A stretch of DNA of 34,477 bases from Planctomyces sp. SH-PL62 (GTDB lineage: Bacteria > Planctomycetota > Planctomycetia > Planctomycetales > Planctomycetaceae). This document shows, in pieces, positions 2,785-32,089 of this stretch. Location: assembly GCA_945893075.1 (NCBI GenBank), contig CAMDDX010000036.1, positions 1 through 34,477 of the forward strand. The letters run 5' to 3'. The stretch's first letter is position 1. Each line of letters opens with the position of its first letter. Under the pieces are notes generated by a model. The model did not search any database. It saw nothing but the letters and a program-made list of their open reading frames with translations, and was not told the DNA's origin. Made by a program: the position numbers and the translations under genes.

Positions 2785-5700
2785 ATGAGGAGCTCTCAAA
2801 TTCCAAATCTCAAATCTCAAATTCCGGACGGCGTGTGTGCCTGCCTGCGAAGCATGTTCGTGATGGTCTTGGCCACGCTCTGTCTGACTTCGGTGTCGAC
2901 GGCTAATCAAAAGGGAAAGGATAAAGCGCAGGCCGCTTCAGAAACCGGCTTGCGAAAGGACGTCGAGACCTTCGCCAAGATCAAGTTCACACGGCAGGCG
3001 GAAGAAGCGTTTCGCGCGGTGACGGCCGCTCCCGACGCGGCGGCGGATGAGTCCACTCTGCTGTTGTCTTGGGTGCAGTCGGGCCATTGGGACGAGGTCA
3101 AAACATTCCTGAAACAGTTCGAGTCGGAAGGTGGGCGGCGGTTGCACTCCAAGATCTGCTCGGACCTGGCCTTTGCCAATCCGAAGTCCACGATCCTGCC
3201 GCAGGATGTCATCGCGCTGGCCGATGCTTCGCCGGTCGAATTGGATGACAAGCAGATCGGCCACTTGAGCGGTCTGTTGAAGCTGGCCGTGAAGGATTCC
3301 GAATCGCGCACCGAGTTGCTGGCCCAATTGCATCGCGGGACCAACCGGTTGGGTGGGGCCGACGCGGATCGCCGTCGCATGGCCGCGCGGTTGCTGGCAG
3401 GGGCGGACCTGCAAGCCGAAGCGAAAACCTTTGGCTTGCCGGAGCGAGACCTTCGTCCCGGCGCGGTCGAAGTGCCACAACCAGAAGTCCCCTTGGTTCC
3501 GGTGAAACGTTCTTGGGACCAACTGCTCGCGACGCTGCGTGATCCGAAGTTGGAACCAGTCGCTCGCAACGTCGTGCTGGATGAACTGCATGAGTTGTTG
3601 CTCGCCGCTGAGCCGCAGGCCGTCGCGAAGCAGTTGCAAGCCGTTGCCGCCGATCAAAACGGAAAACACACCGAAGTGACGCGGTTGATCTTCGGCATGA
3701 TCGGCCAAAAGACGGCCGCTGCGGGACGTGAGGTCGATTACACCGCGCGAGCCGTGCATCTGGAGCTGCAACATCGAGCCATCACGGCGCTCGTCACGAC
3801 TACCAAACTGGATGACGAACCGTGGCGAACGCTCGCCAATCTCTGCGCCAACAACTGGCTTGTGGAAGCGAATAACAGTCTCAAGGTCTATCCGCTGTGG
3901 CTTCGGTCGCCGGCCAGTCGCGATAAACATCCGCATGTGCCGCTAGAGACCGTGATTCAGCACGCACCAACCGGAGCTTGGATGGCTGCTCTGCAATCGT
4001 CCTTGAACTCGATGGTCCGCGTGACGCTGACGCGCGTCATACTGTCGTCGGACGACATTGATCGGGCCTTGCCCTACGTGCAGGAACTGGTCCGCACCGA
4101 CGGCCCGGCCGCCGCCAAGTTGGCGAACTCTTATCTGGAGACTTGGGCGTTGCGGCACGACCCCAATCTCTCTCAAGAAGTGATGAGACAGTACCGCGTC
4201 GACAACCAAGTCATCGTGCTCACGCGGGCGCAGCAAGAGGCGAGCTTGCAACAACTCGGCGCGCTGCTGGCGTCGCTCGATGAACCGACGCGCAAGCTGC
4301 TCGACGAAACGCAGTTGGTCCGTGCGTTCGATTTCTGCCACAGCCGGGCCGAGGTTTACACGCAGGCGCACCTCGTGGAGGTCTTCGGCACGCTCGAACA
4401 AATCTCTCCCAGCCTGATGCTGTCGCTGACCGATCGAACGCGGAACAAATTGGCGTCGCAGTGGCGTGACCTCGCGGTGCAACGCGATGCCGCGACGAAA
4501 CGGACCACCTCGGATGTGTTTCAGCTCGTCAGCCACGGCTATGACGAAGCTGCTCGCACGGCCGAGCAATGGCTTGCATCGCACTCGGACGATTGGCGGA
4601 TGAATTGCACGGTCGGCTCATTGCTGTCCGACTGGGCCGAGTTTGCGTATTTCCAAAGCGTTGCGATGGACGAAGGCGGCGATCGCTTCGCCAGCTACCT
4701 GAAGCACAGCCAGCAGGCGCTGTCCCGTTTCCACGCCGGAGCCGACGCCTACGCGGCGCTCGTCCCCAAGCTCAAGCGGAATGAGTTCGATCTGCTGCCG
4801 TATAAAGCGTGGTTCTATGGTCTGCTCGGCATCACGCACGACGGGGGCGTCAACCTTCGCAAAGGGGTCACTCGCGACGGGATCGACGAGATTCGCAAAG
4901 CGTTGCTGGACCTGCCGGGTGGTGCCAGTGCGGCGCACATCCAAATGTTCTCGACGATGGTCGCCGACAATGTGACGGCCAATCGCATCGCGCCGGAGAT
5001 GAAGTACCGCTATCTCAGCAGCGCGGTCCACATCACCGGCCGCCAGCCGACCATCTATCCGGCCGAAGAGAAGATCAAATACTACGACTCGCTGCTGAAG
5101 GAGATTCGCCTGCAAACGCGACTGGACGGCAGCGATCGGATTCACACGCCGGGCGTGTTTGGAGTGTTCGTCAGCTTGGCACACACCACGGACGTGGCTC
5201 GCGAGAGTGGCGGCTTCGGCAAATACCTGATGAACGAGATCCCGCGCACGGTGTCGGGCAAGACGATCATCGAAAAGCCGCTCTACCGCGACCGGTTTGA
5301 AGAGGCGTTGCGAGTCGCGCTGGAGGGCTTCTTCGAGATCCGCTCGATCACGTTTGCTGATCCAGCGAGCGGCGCTCGCGGCATCGAGTCTCCGGCCAAC
5401 TCGGGATGGCAAGAGACGCCGCTGGCCTACTTGCTGCTCGAAACGAAAGACAAAACGGTCGATCGCGTCCCAGCGCTGGAGATCGAACTCGACTTCTTCG
5501 ACCGCGAGGGGAAGGTCGTCATCCCCGTGCCGTCGAATCCGATCCTCATTGAGATGAACGCCGAGGCTCCGGTTCAACGCCCGGCGGCAAACGTGGCGCT
5601 GACGCTGATCGTCGATAGCCGCGAACTGGCCGACAAACGCTTGAAGATCGACGTGGTGGCGACGGCTCACGGATTGGTTCCGGAACTCGATCAGTTGTTG

Positions 5701-17645: not shown

Positions 17646-17765
17646 TCCCATTCGCTGCCTCCCTTAATTCGCTGTCGAATCCTGTCCTTAGGAATTGAAC
17701 GCGGGGCTGATTGCTTATCGGACAACAAAAGATCGACAGCGAATTTAGAGAGACAGCGAATGGGG
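17646..17765. repeat. Repeat family B, copy 1
   Basis: Inverted arms CCCATTCGCTGCCTCCCTTA (from 17647) and, at the far end, AGAGAGACAGCGAATGGG (to 17764), about 35 bp each with a few mismatches. Each arm contains ATTCGCTG twice as a direct repeat. Same arms as copy 2 at 32001-32089, but a longer and different core (~50 bp). Confidence 0.85.
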
Positions 17766-18084: not shown

Positions 18085-18477
18085 ATGCCTAAGCCTGAGT
18101 TGCCACGACCCACGGAAGCGGAACTTGCGATCTTGCGAGTTCTCTGGGAGCGCGGGCCCAGCACCGTGCGTGAAGTGACCGACGTGCTGCAAGAGGCGCG
18201 CGGGACGGGATACACGACCGCGTTGAAGCTGTTGCAGATCATGACCGAGAAGGGGCTCGTCCAGCGCGACGAAACTTCGCGGGCTCATGCTTATGAAGCG
18301 GTCGCCTCGGCCGAGACGACGCAGCGGCAGCTTGTCAGCGATCTGCTGGAGCGAGCCTTTGGCGGTTCAGCTCGGCAGTTGGTGTTGCAAGCGTTGTCGG
18401 CCAAGCGCGCCTCACGCGATGAACTGGCGGAGATTCGCGGCTTGTTGGATGAGTTCGAGAAGAAAGCGAAGTCGTAG
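18085..18477 (+). CDS. blaI: BlaI/MecI/CopY-family transcriptional repressor
   Basis: A 130-aa winged-helix repressor. The family opening LPRPTEAELAILRVLWERGP (about 6-25) and the recognition region TGYTTALKLLQIMTEKGLV are clear, and a C-terminal helical dimerisation part follows. In BlaI/BlaR1 systems the repressor is inactivated when the membrane zinc protease senses a signal. The partner protease gene starts 17 bases downstream. The start is well set by GAAGGAG 8 bases before the ATG. The double dyad upstream suggests it represses its own operon. The signal need not be a beta-lactam. Confidence 0.95.
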   Translation: MPKPELPRPTEAELAILRVLWERGPSTVREVTDVLQEARGTGYTTALKLLQIMTEKGLVQRDETSRAHAYEAVASAETTQRQLVSDLLERAFGGSARQLVLQALSAKRASRDELAEIRGLLDEFEKKAKS

Positions 18478-18493
18478 CGCACGGAGACCGATC

Positions 18494-21400
18494 ATGTTGA
18501 GTCATGCGATCGAAGTTCTCGGTTGGACGCTGCTGCACTTTGTGTGGCAGGGAGCTGTTGTGGGGGTGCTCGCGGCGGCGACGCTGCTGGCGTTGCGGCC
18601 TAGGTCCGCGAACGCTCGCTATTTGACGGCGGTGTCCGCGTTGAGCCTGATGTTGCTGTTGCCGATCGGCACGATCGCTTGGCTCGAACGTGTGCCGGCA
18701 CCGGAAGACATCGCGCCGATCGTCACGACGACACCGGCCATCGAAATGCCTCTCGCTCGCGAAATGGACCTCTCTCCGCTGGACGAGTCGCCGATCAGCG
18801 TCGAACGCATCGAGTTCGAGAAAACGCCTCACGCCGCTGCGGTGGCGGAAACGAAACCGACGCGGCTCGAAGAGGTGTCCGAGAAGCGAGAGACTTTCGA
18901 TGTCGAGGCGTTCGTCAAGCCGTTCATCCCGTGGGCCGTGGGGGTGTGGCTGATCGGTGTCGGAGTTCTTTCGCTCCGCTTGTTCGCGAGTTGGTTGAGC
19001 GTGCTGCGTTTGCGTCGGCGAGCGACTCAGCCGGCGAGTGCGAATTGGCAAGCGCTGCTCGGCCGGTTGGCCGAGCGGTTGCGGGTCACTCGGCCGGTGA
19101 AGCTGGTCGAGTCGGCGTTGGTGGAAGTTCCCGCGGTCATCGGTTGGCTGAGGCCGGTCATTTTGTTGCCGGCCAGTGCGGTGACGGGGCTGACGACTGA
19201 GCAGCTCGAAGCCTTACTCGCTCACGAACTCGCTCATGTGCGGCGGCACGACTATTTCATCAACCTGCTGCAAACGGTGGTCGAGACGCTGCTGTTCTAT
19301 CACCCGGCCGTCTGGTGGATATCGCGCCGCATCCGCATCGAACGCGAGCGATGCTGTGACGACCTCGCCGTGCAAGCTTGCGGCGATCGGCTGGCCTATG
19401 CGAAGGCACTCGTGGCACTCGAAGAGTTAAGAGCACCGGTGTCGCGGTTCGCGCTGGGAGCGGCGGATGGGTCATTGCGTGATCGTGTTCAGCGAGTGAT
19501 TGCTCCGTCGTCGAATCAACGATTGACCGCCTCGTCGCAATTCGCCGTCGTGACCGGCTGTCTGGCGATCGTCTTGGTCGCCATTTTTATGACGCAGTCT
19601 CCGCGCGGGCAGGGAGTCAATCCGCCCAAGTCGGAACCGGTGAATTCGGAGATTGAACCGCGTGCGCTCGGCGCGGGTCTCCTGACCCCGCCGGAAAAGC
19701 CGACCGAAGGTCTCCCGAACAATGCGGAGCAAAAGAGTGAGGCAAAACCACGAGCCGACGAGAACGATCCGGCGATGAAAAAGTTTCTGGCCATCTGCGT
19801 TCGTGACGCGATGGCAGCGTTGGTTGACGGCCGCTTGGAGTTGGCGTTGGAGCAGGAATTCCGGGTCAAGCCCACCGCCGAAAAGCCGGAGGGAGATGTT
19901 TTCAAGTCGACGGCGACCGCGGGCTGGATTGGCGAGGGCCAGAAGTGGCGTGTCGATTTCGACGGACGGATTCTGCGGCCAGTTGAGAATCGTTTCGTCC
20001 ATGAATGGTTGCCGCATCAATGGTCTGCGGGCTTCGATGGCCAACAGCATTACTCGTGGGACCGAGACGCCCGCGAGATCGAGATCGGTCGTCCGTTCTT
20101 GATGGCGTTGCAGTACTCGCCGCCGCAATTGTTTTGGGGCTACTCTTCCGCGGACTTGCAGACGGTGCTGACGTCGCCAGACACCAGAATCACCGAGGCC
20201 GTGCATCAAGGGTTGAGCTGTTTTCGCATCGAAGCGGAACATGCCAACGGTCCCAGCAAGAAAATTCGAGTCGCTCTGCTGTTGTGTCCCGAACGCGGGT
20301 ATCTCCCGTTGGAAATCCGCACTTTCTCCGAGTCCCGACTCGACAGCGAAACACAGTTCTCCGACTTCATCGAACTGCGAGCCGGAGTCTGGGCTCCTCG
20401 GAAGATTCTCACCAAATGGGATGACGCCCCCATCGCTGGCGTCAGTCAGACGGCTCAGCAAATCATCACCACCGTGAAACGCTGCGAGTTGAGTGAGGCT
20501 GCGAAAATCCAATCCGAGGAATTCCGAGTCGATCCCCCTGCAGGGACGAAGCGGATTGAACCTGACAAAACTGGAGACCTGCGGTCCAGCGAAGCGGCGG
20601 GGTCAGGAGACCCGCGCCGAGCGCAGGAATTGCCACAAGGTGACGCGGAAGCACTTGACGCACTTGAGCGTTGGCGAAAAGCCACGGACAACCTTGCTTC
20701 GTTTGAAGCGGATTTTGATCGCTACGAATATGACTCGGTTTTTCAAGTCATGAAGCGCGGAGTCGGTCACTTTCGTTGGAGCGGCGCGGAATCGTGGCAT
20801 TATGAACTCAAGCCGTTCGACGTTCCGAAAGGCAAAACGGTCACGGCCAAACAATGGGAAACTGGCAAACTCAACACGTTTCAGGTTGAAGCGAGTCAAC
20901 CTGAAATCTGGACTCGCGATGGCAACTCCCTCACTCAAGAATCGCTTGGCAAGAAATGGTCGGTTCAGATCCCAAGAGAGAGTGATCTCCCCACGAACTT
21001 TTTCGCTGATCTGATCGCTGCTGTTGCTCGTGGACCGTTCGCTATCCCACCAAAACCCCAGCACATCGAGAAGGTCAGGCAGGTCGAGAAAACCGGGGAA
21101 GAGATTTGGTTGCAGATCACTCCCAATGGCGATGAACGCAGGTGTTATCAACTCATGATCGCCATTCTGAATCGCAAGACGCACTTGCCTCGAGCGATTC
21201 GGATGATCGATCCTGCGGGCACAAAAGTCACCGACCTTGCTTATCGGTCGCTCAGCATTCGGTTGCGAAATGGCGGTGTCACGACCACTACACAAGATTC
21301 GACAAGAGACCTCGATTGGGGGACTCCGGTGGCCGTTGAAAAACGAACCGATTCACTGAAAAGCCGAGCGGATGCACTGAGACTCTTGACCTGGTCCGAC

Positions 21401-24400
21401 CCGGTTGAGGGAGCGGGAGACTCGCGCCAAGCACAGGCGGTGAATCCTCAAAACGCTGACACCGCCCCGAAGGCTGCTACTCCTATCAAGGGGCAAATCC
21501 GATGGGTTGATCCACCCAATAGCCGAGTCTGGATCAATCTTGGTCAGGCTGATGGCGTCGTTCGGCGGATGAAGTTTCAAGTCGTCGAGAAGGAGACTCC
21601 GAAGAATGGCGATCCGCCGCCAGCGGTTAAGGGAAAGATCGAAGTCCTCCGAATCATTGACGGCCACACCGCTGAGGCTCGCATTCTTGAAGGTCAAAAC
21701 AATGCTGTGGCGAAAGGCGATGAAGTCGTTCAACTCTTTGAAACCACACAGACGAACGACGAGCCGATTGAAGGACAACGCAAACTGCCACCGCCGAAAG
21801 GCGAAATCTACGACGCCGCGCGTCCCCGTAATGATCGCGTAAAGCCGAATCGAGAATCAGGGGCTGTGAGTGGAGCGATCAGTGGCAACCGCCGAGATCG
21901 CGATCCAAAGATGTTCGACCAGTTCACCGGCCGAGTGCGGCTCAAGACGGAGAAGCCGTTGCCGGATTTGGAAAAGGTGGTGGTCCCGGCAGGCAAGGTG
22001 TTGGATGAGTCGTTGGTGTTCTCGAAGGACGGCGGCTTGGCGAATGTGTTTGTTTATTTGTGGAAGCCAACATTCAAGATCGACGAGCTGGCGATCGGCG
22101 ACCGAGTGAGTCCAGCATTTCTGTTTGCAGGTGACGGAAAGTTCTGGCCGCGTGCCGCGATCGTGCGCGTGGGAAGTCCGCTCACCTTACTCAACAGCGG
22201 ACCGGATCTCGTCGATTTTCACGCGCAACCGTTGAGAAGCGATGGTTTCAACGTCACTGTCGGGAAGGATCATCAGAGCGAGGTCGCTCCCTTTAAGCGT
22301 GCTGAGAGCGTCCCGTTTTCGGTGAAATGCAGCTTCACACCGTGGTTGCTGGCGCATGTGCTGACGCTCGATCATCCATTCGCGAGCGTGACGGACAAGG
22401 ATGGCAACTTCCGTATCAACGGTCTGCCACCCGGCGAACACGGGTTCCGGGTTTGGCACGAGCGGGCTGGCGACTTGGAAAAGTCACTCGTCGTCACGAT
22501 CAAGCCGGGTGAAAAATCACGCAGCGATTTGGACTACGAACCGACTCGTTTCAAGCTGGAAGAGTCGGAGATCCAGAACTGGGGCAATCGGCAAATCAAA
22601 ACCGCGCGCGGCGCGGGTCTCCCGAACGACACGCGGCCAACATCAACGAAATCAACCGACGCGAACGAGGAGACCTCCGGTCCAACCCAGCGGCGGGGTC
22701 AGGAGACCCGCGCCGAGCGCGACGTCGGACAGCTCACTGGCCGAGTGCGACTCAAGACGGAGAAACCGCTGCCGAATTTGGAGCAGGTGATCGTCCCGGC
22801 GGGCAAGGTGTTGGATGAGTCGTTGGTGTTCTCGAAGGACGGCGGCTTGGCGAATGTGTTCGTGTACTTGCAGAAGCCGACTTTCCCAATCGAACCACCG
22901 CCGAGCAACAAACCTCCGAAACCGTTCGTGTTGATTGCGGAGGGAGAACGGTTCTGGCCTCATGCCTCGTTCGTGCGAGTCGGTAGGCCGGTCGTGTTTG
23001 AGAACCGGCAAACTGAGCCAGTCAACTTTCGCATGGGGCCACTGAAAAACGTTTCCTTCAACGTCCTGGTGAAGATTCAGGAGCATGTCAAAATTCAGGC
23101 GTTCCGATATTCGGAAGCCTTCCCGTTTAAGCTTCAGTCGGACATTCAGCCGTGGATGGTGTCGCATCTGCTGACGCTCGATCATCCCTTCGCCGCCGTG
23201 ACGGATGACGAGGGTCGCTTCAACATCGACGGCCTGCCTCCAGGCGATCACGAGTTCCATGTCTGGCACGAACGGGTCGGCTACTTGGAGAAGAAGCTCC
23301 GCGTCACGATTAAGGCCGGCGAACCCACTCGCAATGCCTTGGAGTACGAACCCAGCCGCTTCGAACTCAACGAGCCCGATGTTCTGAACTGGGGCCAAAG
23401 GCAAATCGACTCGGTGAGGAACCCGATTCCTCTGCCGAGAGTTCCACGCGTACCGGCGGCCGCTCCAAAAGTCGAAGCGAAACGGGAATCACCAGACGCC
23501 GGCGCTGGAAGCGGGGCTCCCGACGTCAGCGCTGGGCGCGGGTCTCCTGACCCCGCCCCGAAGCCGACCGCAGGTCTCCCGGATTCGGTGAGCGAAGTAC
23601 AAGCTGGCGAGAAAAACAAACCCGAAGGAGACCTGCGGTCCAACCCAGCGGCGGGGTCAGGAGACCCGCGCCGAGCGCAGGATGACCCGCGCCGAGCGCA
23701 GGCCGTCGAGCGTGCGGTCGCGTTCTTGAAATCGCAGCAGAAAGCGGATGGCAGTTGGGATGGGTTTGCGAGCGCTCCCGGTGCTGTGACCTCGCTGTGT
23801 GTCGCGGCGTTGTTGCAAGCGGGTGTGAAACCGGATGACGCCGGAATCCAGAAAGCGATCGCCCCCTTGCGGAAGATCGAGCCGGCGCAGATCTACGCGG
23901 TCGCGTTGCAAACGATGGTCTTCTGCGCCGCGTCACCGAAAGAGGATGCGGAATTGATTCGGCGAAACGTGGCCTGGATCGAGAAGGCTCAAGTGCCGGA
24001 CGGCAAGTCGCGCGGAGCTTGGAGTTATGCGTTGGCTCACGGCGGACGAGGGGATGGTTCCTGTTCGCGGTTTGCCCTGCTGGGATTGCAAGCCGCCAAG
24101 AAAGCGGGCTTCGAGGTGCAGGCTGAAACGTGGCGACGAGTCAGCGACTACTACCTGACGACTCAAACGAATGAGGGGGGCTGGAGCTACGCAGCACAGG
24201 GGCCGCCATCACCGACGATGACTCTGGCAGGAGTGGCCGGCTTGGCGACGGCGAATCGGTACTTGCCTCAAGATGAGCAAACGAAAACTCGCGAAGCCGC
24301 CATTCGCAAGCCGGCCGAGTATCTCGAAAAGGTGATCCCCGAACTGCAACGAGCCCCGTTCGCGTTTTATGCCCTGCATTGCCTGGAACGAGCGGGACAT

Positions 24401-24952
24401 GTCAGCGGTCAGACTCAATTCGGCAAGCTCGAATGGAAAGCCGACATGACCAAGCGGCTGCTGGATGCACAAGGTCCAAAAGGGAGTTGGAGTGGTGCCA
24501 CCGCACCGGCCGTCGAAAACGAACTCATCGCAACCAGCTTGGCGCTGCTCTCGCTGACGGGCCAGCCAGAGCCGAAGCTGATGAGTCGCCGTTTGCGCAT
24601 CGAACCGCGCGACGCGAAAAAGCCGTTTCAGGTTCAGAGCAGCTTGATCGAAAACTCATCGCCGCCTCGCCATCGGACTTCGTTCAGCGGCGGCGTGCGA
24701 ATTGAAGGGATCGAATCCGATGGTTCGAAATGGCGAATCGAAGCTGATCGAGCGGTGATCGACTCTTTCGCGCGAGTCAATGAAAAGTTCGAGTTCACTC
24801 CTGACAGCGACGTGACGCGCGTCGTCTGTACCGGTTCGGTGATTTTCGAAGGTGGCGATGGCGATCAATTGACGAAGGTGACGGCAGAGGATTTCGATCT
24901 CAACCTGCTTGAGAACTCCGGTTTGTTCAATACGAACCGCAGCCTGCCGTGA
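18494..24952 (+). CDS. Giant BlaR1/M56 zinc-protease sensor fused to periplasmic modules
   Basis: A 2152-aa fusion; classical BlaR1 is about 600 aa. Residues 1-380 are an M56 membrane protease: membrane segments near 10-35, 45-62, 147-163 and 360-378, zinc motif HELAH (244-248) and ERCCDD (285-290). Then, in order, a LolA-like region (425-690), a second LolA-like domain resembling the TIGR03009 type (715-945), an SH3-like domain (995-1087), two cupredoxin-like domains with carboxypeptidase-regulatory-like ends (1142-1356, 1412-1632), a terpenoid-cyclase-like helical toroid (1736-2033) and an LptA/OstA-like C-terminus (2031-2152). Seven copies of repeat C lie in the linkers. I chose ATG 18494; the frame is open further up inside blaI. 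The protease should cut BlaI; what the outer modules sense is unknown. Domain limits are approximate. Confidence 0.85.
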   Translation: MLSHAIEVLGWTLLHFVWQGAVVGVLAAATLLALRPRSANARYLTAVSALSLMLLLPIGTIAWLERVPAPEDIAPIVTTTPAIEMPLAREMDLSPLDESPISVERIEFEKTPHAAAVAETKPTRLEEVSEKRETFDVEAFVKPFIPWAVGVWLIGVGVLSLRLFASWLSVLRLRRRATQPASANWQALLGRLAERLRVTRPVKLVESALVEVPAVIGWLRPVILLPASAVTGLTTEQLEALLAHELAHVRRHDYFINLLQTVVETLLFYHPAVWWISRRIRIERERCCDDLAVQACGDRLAYAKALVALEELRAPVSRFALGAADGSLRDRVQRVIAPSSNQRLTASSQFAVVTGCLAIVLVAIFMTQSPRGQGVNPPKSEPVNSEIEPRALGAGLLTPPEKPTEGLPNNAEQKSEAKPRADENDPAMKKFLAICVRDAMAALVDGRLELALEQEFRVKPTAEKPEGDVFKSTATAGWIGEGQKWRVDFDGRILRPVENRFVHEWLPHQWSAGFDGQQHYSWDRDAREIEIGRPFLMALQYSPPQLFWGYSSADLQTVLTSPDTRITEAVHQGLSCFRIEAEHANGPSKKIRVALLLCPERGYLPLEIRTFSESRLDSETQFSDFIELRAGVWAPRKILTKWDDAPIAGVSQTAQQIITTVKRCELSEAAKIQSEEFRVDPPAGTKRIEPDKTGDLRSSEAAGSGDPRRAQELPQGDAEALDALERWRKATDNLASFEADFDRYEYDSVFQVMKRGVGHFRWSGAESWHYELKPFDVPKGKTVTAKQWETGKLNTFQVEASQPEIWTRDGNSLTQESLGKKWSVQIPRESDLPTNFFADLIAAVARGPFAIPPKPQHIEKVRQVEKTGEEIWLQITPNGDERRCYQLMIAILNRKTHLPRAIRMIDPAGTKVTDLAYRSLSIRLRNGGVTTTTQDSTRDLDWGTPVAVEKRTDSLKSRADALRLLTWSDPVEGAGDSRQAQAVNPQNADTAPKAATPIKGQIRWVDPPNSRVWINLGQADGVVRRMKFQVVEKETPKNGDPPPAVKGKIEVLRIIDGHTAEARILEGQNNAVAKGDEVVQLFETTQTNDEPIEGQRKLPPPKGEIYDAARPRNDRVKPNRESGAVSGAISGNRRDRDPKMFDQFTGRVRLKTEKPLPDLEKVVVPAGKVLDESLVFSKDGGLANVFVYLWKPTFKIDELAIGDRVSPAFLFAGDGKFWPRAAIVRVGSPLTLLNSGPDLVDFHAQPLRSDGFNVTVGKDHQSEVAPFKRAESVPFSVKCSFTPWLLAHVLTLDHPFASVTDKDGNFRINGLPPGEHGFRVWHERAGDLEKSLVVTIKPGEKSRSDLDYEPTRFKLEESEIQNWGNRQIKTARGAGLPNDTRPTSTKSTDANEETSGPTQRRGQETRAERDVGQLTGRVRLKTEKPLPNLEQVIVPAGKVLDESLVFSKDGGLANVFVYLQKPTFPIEPPPSNKPPKPFVLIAEGERFWPHASFVRVGRPVVFENRQTEPVNFRMGPLKNVSFNVLVKIQEHVKIQAFRYSEAFPFKLQSDIQPWMVSHLLTLDHPFAAVTDDEGRFNIDGLPPGDHEFHVWHERVGYLEKKLRVTIKAGEPTRNALEYEPSRFELNEPDVLNWGQRQIDSVRNPIPLPRVPRVPAAAPKVEAKRESPDAGAGSGAPDVSAGRGSPDPAPKPTAGLPDSVSEVQAGEKNKPEGDLRSNPAAGSGDPRRAQDDPRRAQAVERAVAFLKSQQKADGSWDGFASAPGAVTSLCVAALLQAGVKPDDAGIQKAIAPLRKIEPAQIYAVALQTMVFCAASPKEDAELIRRNVAWIEKAQVPDGKSRGAWSYALAHGGRGDGSCSRFALLGLQAAKKAGFEVQAETWRRVSDYYLTTQTNEGGWSYAAQGPPSPTMTLAGVAGLATANRYLPQDEQTKTREAAIRKPAEYLEKVIPELQRAPFAFYALHCLERAGHVSGQTQFGKLEWKADMTKRLLDAQGPKGSWSGATAPAVENELIATSLALLSLTGQPEPKLMSRRLRIEPRDAKKPFQVQSSLIENSSPPRHRTSFSGGVRIEGIESDGSKWRIEADRAVIDSFARVNEKFEFTPDSDVTRVVCTGSVIFEGGDGDQLTKVTAEDFDLNLLENSGLFNTNRSLP
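19664..19715. repeat. Repeat family C, copy 1 (reverse orientation)
   Basis: GCGCTCGGCGCGGGTCTCCT...GACCGAAGGTCTCC, read in frame as residues 391-408 (RALGAGLLTPP...). It lies right after the last membrane segment of the M56 domain. Confidence 0.85.
20573..20627. repeat. Repeat family C, copy 2 (forward)
   Basis: GGAGACCTGCGGTCCAGCGA...GACCCGCGCCGAGCGCAGG, read as GDLRSSEAAGSGDPRRAQ (residues 694-711), between the two LolA-like regions. Contains the small hairpins GACC-TGC-GGTC and GGGTC-AGGA-GACCC. Confidence 0.9.
21389..21438. repeat. Repeat family C, copy 3 (forward, diverged)
   Basis: GACCTGGTCCGACCCGGTTG...GGGAGACTCGCGCCAAGCACAGG; clearly related to copies 2 and 7 but with many changes, so an older insertion. 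It lies between the second LolA-like domain and the SH3-like domain (residues 966-982). Confidence 0.65.
22604..22626. repeat. Repeat family C, copy 4 (reverse, partial)
   Basis: GCGCGCGGCGCGGGTCTCCC, followed by GAAC as at the end of copy 1; a truncated or internally deleted unit at the end of the first cupredoxin-like domain (residues 1371-1378). Confidence 0.6.
22669..22720. repeat. Repeat family C, copy 5 (forward, different frame)
   Basis: GGAGACCTCCGGTCCAACCC...GGAGACCCGCGCCGAGCGC, read one base out of phase compared with copies 2 and 7, giving ETSGPTQRRGQETRAER (residues 1393-1409). It directly precedes the second cupredoxin-like domain. Confidence 0.9.
23529..23579. repeat. Repeat family C, copy 6 (reverse, second reverse frame)
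   Basis: GCGCTGGGCGCGGGTCTCCT...GACCGCAGGTCTCC, read as AGRGSPDPAPKPTAGLP, a different frame from copy 1. It lies in the linker between the second cupredoxin-like domain and the cyclase-like domain. Confidence 0.88.
23627..23702. repeat. Repeat family C, copy 7 (forward, with end duplication)
   Basis: GGAGACCTGCGGTCCAACCC...GCGCCGAGCGCAGG, read as GDLRSNPAAGSGDPRRAQ, then the last 16 bases repeat (CCGCGCCGAGCGCAGG at 23687-23702). Together with copy 6 it forms an inverted pair of whole units flanking ~45 bp. Confidence 0.9.
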
Positions 24953-25700: not shown

Positions 25701-25765
25701 ACGTAGGACGGACAATCCTGTCCGTCGAATGGCCTTGGGCACGGACAGGATTGTCCGTTCTACGT
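25701..25765. repeat. Inverted repeat E
   Basis: 25-bp arms 25701-25725 and 25741-25765 with one mismatch, beginning ACGTAGGACGGACAATCCTG. Each arm is also a hairpin by itself (GACGGACA-ATCC-TGTCCGTC in the left arm). It lies between the DksA-like gene and lspA and could attenuate read-through between them. Confidence 0.9.
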
Positions 25766-32000: not shown

Positions 32001-32089
32001 GCCCCATTCGCTGTCTCTCTAAATTCGCTGTCGCCTCTGCGACTTGACGGAGAGATCGACAGCGAAGTTAGAGAGACAGCGAATGGGAC
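32001..32089. repeat. Repeat family B, copy 2
   Basis: Arms GCCCCATTCGCTGTCTCTCT (from 32001) and TAGAGAGACAGCGAATGGG (to 32087) in a ~90-bp inverted repeat. The arms match copy 1 (17646-17765), including ATTCGCTGTC as a direct repeat inside each arm, but the core is shorter. It begins 9 bases after the ASKHA gene stop. Confidence 0.88.

What the first reader, a model, noticed from the sequence alone, without database searches (positions are those of the whole stretch)
19664..23702. A palindromic repeat is used as the interdomain linker seven times in one giant sensor protein
Family C units occur seven times in the 6.5-kb BlaR1-like gene and nowhere else in the window. They lie in both orientations and in at least four different reading frames (copies 2 and 7 share one, copy 5 another, copies 1 and 6 two reverse frames), always without a stop. 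Each falls at a boundary I had placed independently from the domains: after the M56 domain, between the LolA-like regions, before the SH3-like domain, between the cupredoxin-like domains and before the cyclase-like domain. This recalls the Rickettsia palindromic elements inserted in proteins, but here one gene has collected a set. It may mean the element helped join modules, or that only linkers tolerate it.
Basis: partly seen in the sequence, partly recalled or inferred. Interest (0 to 1): 0.87.

Follow-up and report, generated by a model that had tools for sequence, protein, structure and literature searches.

The report
Palindromic inserts as protein module joints
A short palindromic DNA repeat, scattered through a planctomycete's genome, sits in frame between the domains of a giant sensor protein, and in related species the protein's building blocks switch at these repeats, which suggests that they serve as joints where domains are swapped.

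Summary
In detail: seven copies of one unit lie in the 2,221-aa M56/BlaR1-like gene and nowhere else in the window, in both orientations and four reading frames, without a stop. The unit is one 52-nt arm of a genome-wide element. Arms usually form inverted pairs round a unique spacer (98 of 103 adjacent pairs in -/+ order), and 50 of 90 pairs have a length divisible by three. The window gene has two pairs and three single arms. I found 46 arm clusters in this genome, 27 of them in ORFs with Pfam or homology support, mostly between Pfam domains; all six frames are used. Relatives have empty sites. This resembles Rickettsia palindromic elements, in a planctomycete. The new part: in related giants the same arm or pair, recognised by spacer or variable segment, joins different modules, and nucleotide homology ends at the arm. 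Three genes share one left module plus arm but carry three unrelated right modules; a fourth shares one of those right modules with another left one. So 'the element helped join modules' is supported, but my linker-matched control does not separate it from 'linkers are where modules switch anyway', and the genomes are drafts. No mobilising enzyme was found; structure prediction failed.

The parts
18287..24952 (+). M56/BlaR1-like giant gene, 2,221 codons from the listed ATG (likely true start ATG at 18494, inferred)
   Evidence: ORF; Pfam PF05569 at aa 216-401, E 1.3e-32
19664..19715 (-). copy 1: single arm after the M56 domain, frame ALGAGLLTPPEKPTEGLP, joint J1
   Evidence: arm profile E 5.4e-14
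20573..20624 (+). copy 2: single arm, frame GDLRSSEAAGSGDPRRAQ, joint J2
   Evidence: arm profile E 2e-15; junction
21389..21432 (+). copy 3: decayed single arm before the block labelled SH3-like, joint J3
   Evidence: arm profile E 3.3e-4; right flank shared with G007
22605..22625 (-). copy 4: truncated left arm of the pair between the two tandem blocks labelled cupredoxin-like
   Evidence: arm profile E 0.0052
22626..22668 (.). spacer of pair 4/5; resembles the spacers of the pairs after M56 in G003, G006 and G005 and of the pair before the equivalent block in G007
   Evidence: read by eye from the printed sequences
22669..22720 (+). copy 5: right arm of pair 4/5, frame EETSGPTQRRGQETRAER, joint J4
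   Evidence: arm profile E 4.7e-15
23529..23579 (-). copy 6: left arm of pair 6/7, frame SAGRGSPDPAPKPTAGLP
   Evidence: arm profile E 2.6e-12
23580..23626 (.). spacer of pair 6/7, similar to the G003 spacer at the same joint
23627..23678 (+). copy 7: right arm of pair 6/7, frame GDLRSNPAAGSGDPRRAQ, joint J5 before the SQHop-cyclase-like block
   Evidence: arm profile E 1.2e-15
23684..23699 (+). short tandem duplicate of the arm's outer end
   Evidence: (E 0.23), family D5

Best explanation
The unit is the arm of a non-autonomous palindromic repeat family (two 52-nt arms in inverted order round a unique spacer, about 90-160 bp) that spread in a planctomycete genus. Shown: genome-wide copies, empty sites, in-frame insertions, position mostly between Pfam domains. 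Inferred: selection removes insertions that break the frame or a fold, so the survivors inside genes sit in linkers. In the M56 giant family the copies did a second job: near-identical and in the same frame in different genes, they offered short homology tracts at which recombination exchanged whole modules without breaking the frame. Shown: the same arm or pair lies at the switch between different modules in related genes. Inferred: that recombination between arms made the switch. How the element itself moves is unknown.
For: Family: 68 matches in its own genome; 12 of 12 genomes of the genus and 24 of 119 searched, own included. Pairs: 98 of 103 adjacent arms -/+; two pairs fold as ssDNA with z -13.3 and -10.6. 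Length divisible by 3 in 50 of 90 pairs, P 1.2e-5; 43 of 68 where the spanning ORF has >=400 codons, 7 of 22 elsewhere. Empty against filled sites: net +129, +117 and +33 nt. 3 of 26 clusters inside a Pfam domain against 10.0 expected, P 0.0007. Switching at nucleotide level (local scores over 240-nt flanks): window gene, G003 and G007 share left flank and arm (left 87, 98, 185; shuffled maxima 16-18) while right flanks are unrelated (11, 12, 14; shuffled maxima 15-18); G003 and G005 share the right, not the left. The variable segment of the G003 arm matches the window and G007 arms, not the G005 arm (two differences), which fits a switch in the last ~30 nt of the arm or just past it. Pair 4/5 and a G007 pair share spacer and right flank (178), not left. 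Collinearity broken at 62 of 68 informative comparisons at arms, 794 of 2052 elsewhere.
Against: With controls limited to linker-like composition, collinearity is broken in 469 of 818, 300 of 436, 126 of 163 or 39 of 41 comparisons as the cut rises, so the arms' 62 of 68 may be partly or wholly a linker effect. At 11 of 12 non-M56 sites relatives keep both flanks together. Two M56 giants without arms (G001:C59, G001:C450) also match the others only in parts. All genomes are drafts; joints seen in one genome rest on one assembly. Switching events are few (my estimate six or seven), all in one gene family, and the compared genes are related, so counts are not independent. One reverse frame (ALGAGLLTPP, 7 of 46 arms) is hydrophobic rather than linker-like. 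AlphaFold models were useless (mean pLDDT 31.2 and 28.8), so linker position rests on Pfam and homology blocks.
Confidence: 0.62

Rival explanations
1. Linker tolerance only: the element inserts widely, selection keeps in-frame copies in linkers, and the M56 giants exchange modules in linkers by unrelated means; arms at switch points are bystanders.
For: Linker-matched controls break collinearity almost as often at the higher cuts; 11 of 12 other host sites keep both flanks together in relatives; 3 of 26 clusters lie inside Pfam domains.
Against: The same copy, identified by spacer or variable segment, is kept while the module on one side changes, and homology stops at the arm edge in several genes; both partners of a switch carry an arm there.
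Confidence: 0.28
2. Assembly artefact: short-read assemblers joined unrelated contigs at the repeat.
For: The genomes of the genus are drafts of 210 to 1,710 contigs, and repeats are where assemblers fail.
Against: Half-joints recur in separate genomes: left module|arm in three, arm|right module in two (three such cases), pair|cyclase block in three, with a fourth in G001:C26. Frames stay open over 1,779-2,761 codons in four genes. Copies 3 and 4 are too decayed to be confused with other copies (inference).
Confidence: 0.06
3. A REPIN/RAYT system: REP doublets mobilised by a Y1 tyrosine transposase.
For: Inverted doublets with variable spacer and hairpin, as in REPINs; Y1_Tnp matches in 11 of 12 genomes of the genus.
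Against: No arm at E<=0.01 in the 35 of 91 Y1_Tnp places scanned, including all 8 of the window's own genome; 27 of 46 clusters lie in supported ORFs, whereas REPINs are described as extragenic.
Confidence: 0.15
4. Low-complexity drift or a genuine protein domain rather than a DNA element.
For: Several of the encoded peptides are rich in Gly, Pro, Ser and Arg.
Against: Near-identical DNA in all six frames, in many unrelated genes and in places without a supported gene; empty sites.
Confidence: 0.01

Closest known systems
Rickettsia palindromic elements (RPE; Ogata et al. 2000, seen only as cited in PMC3767692 and PMC10969869, passages read) and Wolbachia palindromic elements
   Same: Palindromic repeats of about 100-150 bp dispersed in the genome, many in ORFs in frame without destroying them, at solvent-exposed sites of the protein
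   Different: Planctomycete host; two conserved arms round a site-specific spacer; all six frames used; several copies in one gene; copies at module switch points. Sequence relation to RPE was not tested.
REPIN / REP doublets with RAYT transposase (PMC3116915, passages read)
   Same: Two inverted repeats with a less conserved spacer that form a hairpin, mostly in one order (93% of 430 doublets there, 98 of 103 here)
   Different: REPINs are extragenic and tied to a RAYT; here many copies lie in genes and no Y1 gene scanned has an arm beside it
Intragenic GTAG/CGTC-tagged REPs (PMC3733652, passages read)
   Same: REPs inside ORFs in several species; Planctomycetes are among the REP-bearing phyla
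   Different: That paper places most REPs between genes, and the passages I read mention no module switching; the sequences were not compared
PARCELs, palindromic amphipathic repeat coding elements (PMC2996958, search listing only)
   Same: Palindromic DNA that encodes part of proteins
   Different: Presented in the listing as intragenic tandem repeats; the elements here are dispersed inserts

Membership tests
Rickettsia palindromic elements | Dispersed palindromic repeat of about 100-150 bp | tested here: met
   90 pairs of 88-159 bp, median 132; 68 arm matches in the genome
Rickettsia palindromic elements | Inserted in ORFs in frame without destroying them | tested here: met
   22 of 41 other clusters plus 5 in the window gene lie in ORFs with Pfam or homology support; net inserts of 129, 117 and 33 nt
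Rickettsia palindromic elements | Element encodes a conserved peptide (as stated in PMC10969869) | tested here: not met
   46 arms in 20 supported hosts use all six frames: 14, 6, 4 forward and 7, 14, 1 reverse
Rickettsia palindromic elements | Sequence homology to a described RPE/WPE family | not tested
   No RPE sequences were compared
REPIN/RAYT | Inverted REP doublet with variable spacer forming a hairpin | tested here: met
   98 of 103 adjacent arms -/+; fold z -13.3 and -10.6 for two pairs, -2.3 for a single arm
REPIN/RAYT | Extragenic location | tested here: not met
   27 of the 46 clusters found lie in ORFs with Pfam or homology support; 19 are intergenic or unresolved
REPIN/RAYT | RAYT (Y1) gene flanked by the repeat | tested here: inconclusive
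   No arm in 35 of 91 Y1_Tnp places of the genus, 102 kb with flanks of up to 1.5 kb, all 8 of the own genome among them; 56 not scanned and the genomes are incomplete
MITE | Terminal inverted repeats with target-site duplication | tested here: inconclusive
   Inverted arms at the ends: yes. A 7-nt direct repeat flanks the 33-nt partial insert in L077; none evident in L070 or L075 (read by eye)
MITE | Related autonomous transposon | not tested
   Only PF01797 was checked

The most novel reading that the evidence does not exclude
Intragenic palindromic repeats act as standing, frame-preserving recombination joints in a bacterium: near-identical arms in the linkers of a giant sensor family let whole sensor modules be exchanged between genes and positions, in effect a short-repeat analogue of exon shuffling.
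Probability: 0.45. Interest if true: 0.86.

Novelty: new variant of a known kind. Interest (0 to 1): 0.68.

Why it matters
In-frame palindromic inserts are best known from Rickettsia and Wolbachia, and a 2024 review (PMC10969869, passages read) says that how far they contributed to new or modified Rickettsia proteins remains unexplored. Here is a separate case with empty sites, an in-frame signature and a gene family in which copies traceable by their spacer lie where modules differ between species. It makes the question 'can a mobile repeat help build multidomain proteins in bacteria?' testable in a genus with a dozen held genomes. Planctomycetes are credited with much domain shuffling (PMC8567305, passages read); those passages give no mechanism.

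Tried and rejected
RAYT mobilisation: no arm near the 35 Y1_Tnp places scanned. Conserved hairpins within an arm: of 13 stem pairs only 28-41 (G-C to C-G, 10 distinct arms, one subfamily) and 31-38 (one arm, against 17 broken) show compensatory change, so this is weak. Left and right arm of a pair are no more alike than arms of different sites (P 0.55, 0.10, 0.90). Spacer as host sequence: suggestive at L059 (AANGG) but not at L070 or L075, not claimed. 'The arm is built to be open in all six frames': 99 of 230 distinct arms against 32% of shuffles, weak. Structure prediction: alignments of 3 and 2 sequences gave mean pLDDT 28.8 and 31.2; no fold search was run. The HSP-end test (45 of 106 ends within 25 aa of an arm, 12.3 expected) is inflated by arm-to-arm hits and not relied on. 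The collinearity test was weakened by my own linker-matched control. In loci from other genomes (L089-L103, 15 loci, some of the same genus) the arm lies well inside an ORF of 400 codons or more in about 4 (L097, L100, L101, L102), so intragenic position is not the rule everywhere. Literature: searches for repeats with domain shuffling and for planctomycetes with palindromic elements or BlaR1 or domain shuffling list nothing that describes this; I judged from listings, and the library is open access only.
Full report
Observation. The seven units are real and confined to one gene of the window. A 52-nt arm profile built from 48 full arms of this genome finds arms in the window only between 19664 and 23699, inside the 2,221-codon M56/BlaR1-like ORF. 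Copies 3 (21389-21432) and 4 (22605-22625) are decayed or truncated; the other five match the whole profile. Copies 4+5 and 6+7 are inverted pairs with a spacer; copies 1, 2 and 3 are single arms.

Whose genome. 

What the unit is. A 15-nt core has 25 exact copies in the genome and the arm 68 matches at E<=1. With the profile run on 6-kb stretches round those places I found 41 clusters outside the window gene and 5 inside; weak fragments elsewhere would be missed, so 46 is a lower bound. Among adjacent arms in all loci held then, 98 of 103 distinct pairs are in -/+ order (orthologous sites of different genomes count separately). Arms are near identical; spacers differ from site to site and are similar at orthologous sites. 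Two pairs fold as ssDNA with z -13.3 and -10.6. The element is in 12 of 12 genomes of the genus and in 24 of 119 genomes searched, own included.

Intragenic and in frame. 22 of the 41 clusters outside the window gene lie in an ORF with a Pfam family or with homologous flanks in relatives (in L068 the arm could still precede the true start); 19 are intergenic or unresolved. That is no preference for genes. What marks selection is length: the pair's total length is a multiple of three in 50 of 90 pairs (P 1.2e-5), 43 of 68 where the spanning ORF has 400 codons or more and 7 of 22 otherwise (orthologues are not independent, so P is approximate). 46 arms in 20 supported hosts use all six frames unevenly: 14, 6, 4 forward and 7, 14, 1 reverse; the rare one is the frame with a stop in one arm variant. 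Most frames give hydrophilic peptides; the ALGAGLLTPP frame does not.

Linkers. In 19 hosts with Pfam families (26 clusters), 3 clusters fall inside a domain against 10.0 expected (P 0.0007; 3 of 21, P 0.0012, without the window gene). I used the best stretch of each family only. L058, L073 and the 7952 site of L071 also have families over the cut-off but were left out because the arm lies near the ORF's 5' end and the start is doubtful (all three arms lie outside those families); L062 was left out for a hit below the cut-off, and hosts without Pfam hits cannot be tested. The DUF1595 interruption in L075 counts as inside; L054 (a gap in T2SSE) and the fragment at the M56 edge in L053 count as outside; counting both inside gives P 0.015. 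Examples: between PGM_PMM III and IV (L078), between receiver and Hpt (L066), just before PSD1 (L047, L049), after a kinase domain (L050, L061), between ResIII and Helicase_C (L067). Exceptions: L057 (membrane protein), L075, L079.

Empty sites. 12 of 17 assembled sites were searched in the genus. Relatives keep both flanks together at 11: nine by a direct test on held loci, L047 by single or neighbouring matches, L064. At L061, a protein kinase, 14 held loci have the left flank and none the right, so that site may be another switch. Cleanest insertions: L070, net +129 nt against G010 and G007 (the G005 copy is identical to the G007 one over the 900 nt compared, so it adds nothing); L075, +117 nt against G007 (116 by the same rough count against G006); L077, +33 nt of partial arm flanked by a 7-nt direct repeat, empty in G003. 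At L049 and L057 the empty relatives have a variable linker instead.

Module switching. The related giants of G003, G006, G005 and G007 carry arms too. Block comparison and nucleotide junctions (local scores over 240 nt each side, with shuffled maxima of 13-21) show five joints. J1, after M56: G003, G006, G005 and G007 share the left (136-196); of these only G003 and G007 share the right (134). The window's copy 1 shares the right with G003 and G007 (89, 99), but its left flank near the arm differs (15-24). J2: the window gene, G003 and G007 share left flank and arm (87, 98, 185) with three unrelated right flanks (11, 12, 14); G005 shares the right of G003 (149), not the left (9); G006 shares neither side (its right scores 17 with G003 against a shuffled maximum of 15). 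J3: window copy 3 and G007 share the right only (85; left 12). J4: window pair 4/5 and a G007 pair share spacer and right (178), not left (14); a similar spacer is in the post-M56 pairs of G003, G006 and G005. J5: window and G003 share both sides (159, 65); G005 the right (98), with a left score of 21 against a shuffled maximum of 15. The frame at each joint is the same in the genes compared (in G007 read from the printed sequence). The block called LolA-2 in the window is at the C-terminus of the G005 protein.

How strong is that. Collinearity is broken in 62 of 68 informative comparisons at arms against 794 of 2052 elsewhere, but with linker-like controls the figures are 469 of 818, 300 of 436, 126 of 163 and 39 of 41 as the cut rises. 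So statistics alone do not separate 'arms join modules' from 'linkers break anyway'. The case rests on the identity of the copies: one arm or pair, recognised by spacer or variable segment, is kept while the module beside it changes at its edge, and both partners of a switch bear an arm. Recombination between same-frame arms is the simplest reading; it is inferred.

Caveats. All genomes of the genus are drafts. Half-joints seen in two or more genomes argue against misassembly; joints seen in one do not. The G007 gene has in-frame stops, one inside a J1 arm, and may be a pseudogene. Both structure models failed. No mobilising enzyme was found: 35 of 91 Y1_Tnp places were scanned and have no arm.

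Comparison with the known. In-frame palindromic inserts are known as RPEs (PMC3767692, PMC10969869) and intragenic REPs (PMC3733652), inverted doublets with spacers as REPINs (PMC3116915); passages of each were read. The element works like an RPE and is built like a REPIN, and misses a defining feature of each: a conserved peptide for the first, extragenic position for the second. Four searches of the held library list no description of such elements as module joints.

Noticed in passing
G000 genome; e.g. L050, both sides of the element at 3001-3144: A second palindromic family, GGGGCACGTTNNNAACGTGCCC (encodes GHVSNVP / GHVENV in L050), has 195 forward and 199 reverse matches with up to 3 mismatches against 1 and 2 for the reversed control pattern (being palindromic, one site can count on both strands), often in pairs 31 nt apart. 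In L050 the arm element is nested between two of its copies.
   Followed up: partly
window 17647-17764 and 32003-32087; L072 about 3430: Another inverted-repeat motif (GACAGCGAAT / ATTCGCTGTC) recurs: 6 matches in the window and 5 more in L072, L079 and L080 among the own-genome loci counted.
   Followed up: no
window 25701-25765: Strong 25-nt inverted repeat (ACGTAGGACGGACAATCCTGTCCGT); REP-like by eye, not searched elsewhere.
   Followed up: no
L061, aa 440-484 of the ORF on the - strand: A protein kinase in which the arm pair follows the kinase domain; 14 held loci of other genomes match the kinase side and none the other side: a possible module switch outside the M56 family.
   Followed up: partly
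L277, L043, L044, L045, L275: Some Y1_Tnp genes of the genus have other inverted or direct repeats on both sides (e.g. a GTAG-type palindrome in L277), so they may serve other REP families.
   Followed up: no
L142 (G007:C173) about 2490-2500: In G007 the right arm of the post-M56 pair reads GAGTAGACC, a TAG in the frame used by the other genes; one search counts further stops in the gene.
   Followed up: no
window 21915-23407: Tandem duplication with a spacing of 810 nt (parts 86% and 73% identical), with pair 4/5 between the two repeats.
   Followed up: partly
L145 (G005:C418) and L146 (G003:C28): Other M56-containing giants also collect arms: seven plus a fragment in one G005 ORF, four in one G003 ORF.
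   Followed up: partly
L251 (G005:C341) and L269 (G007:C112): These two genomes hold an identical 900-nt stretch at the same contig coordinates: shared contig or cross-binning between the two drafts.
   Followed up: no
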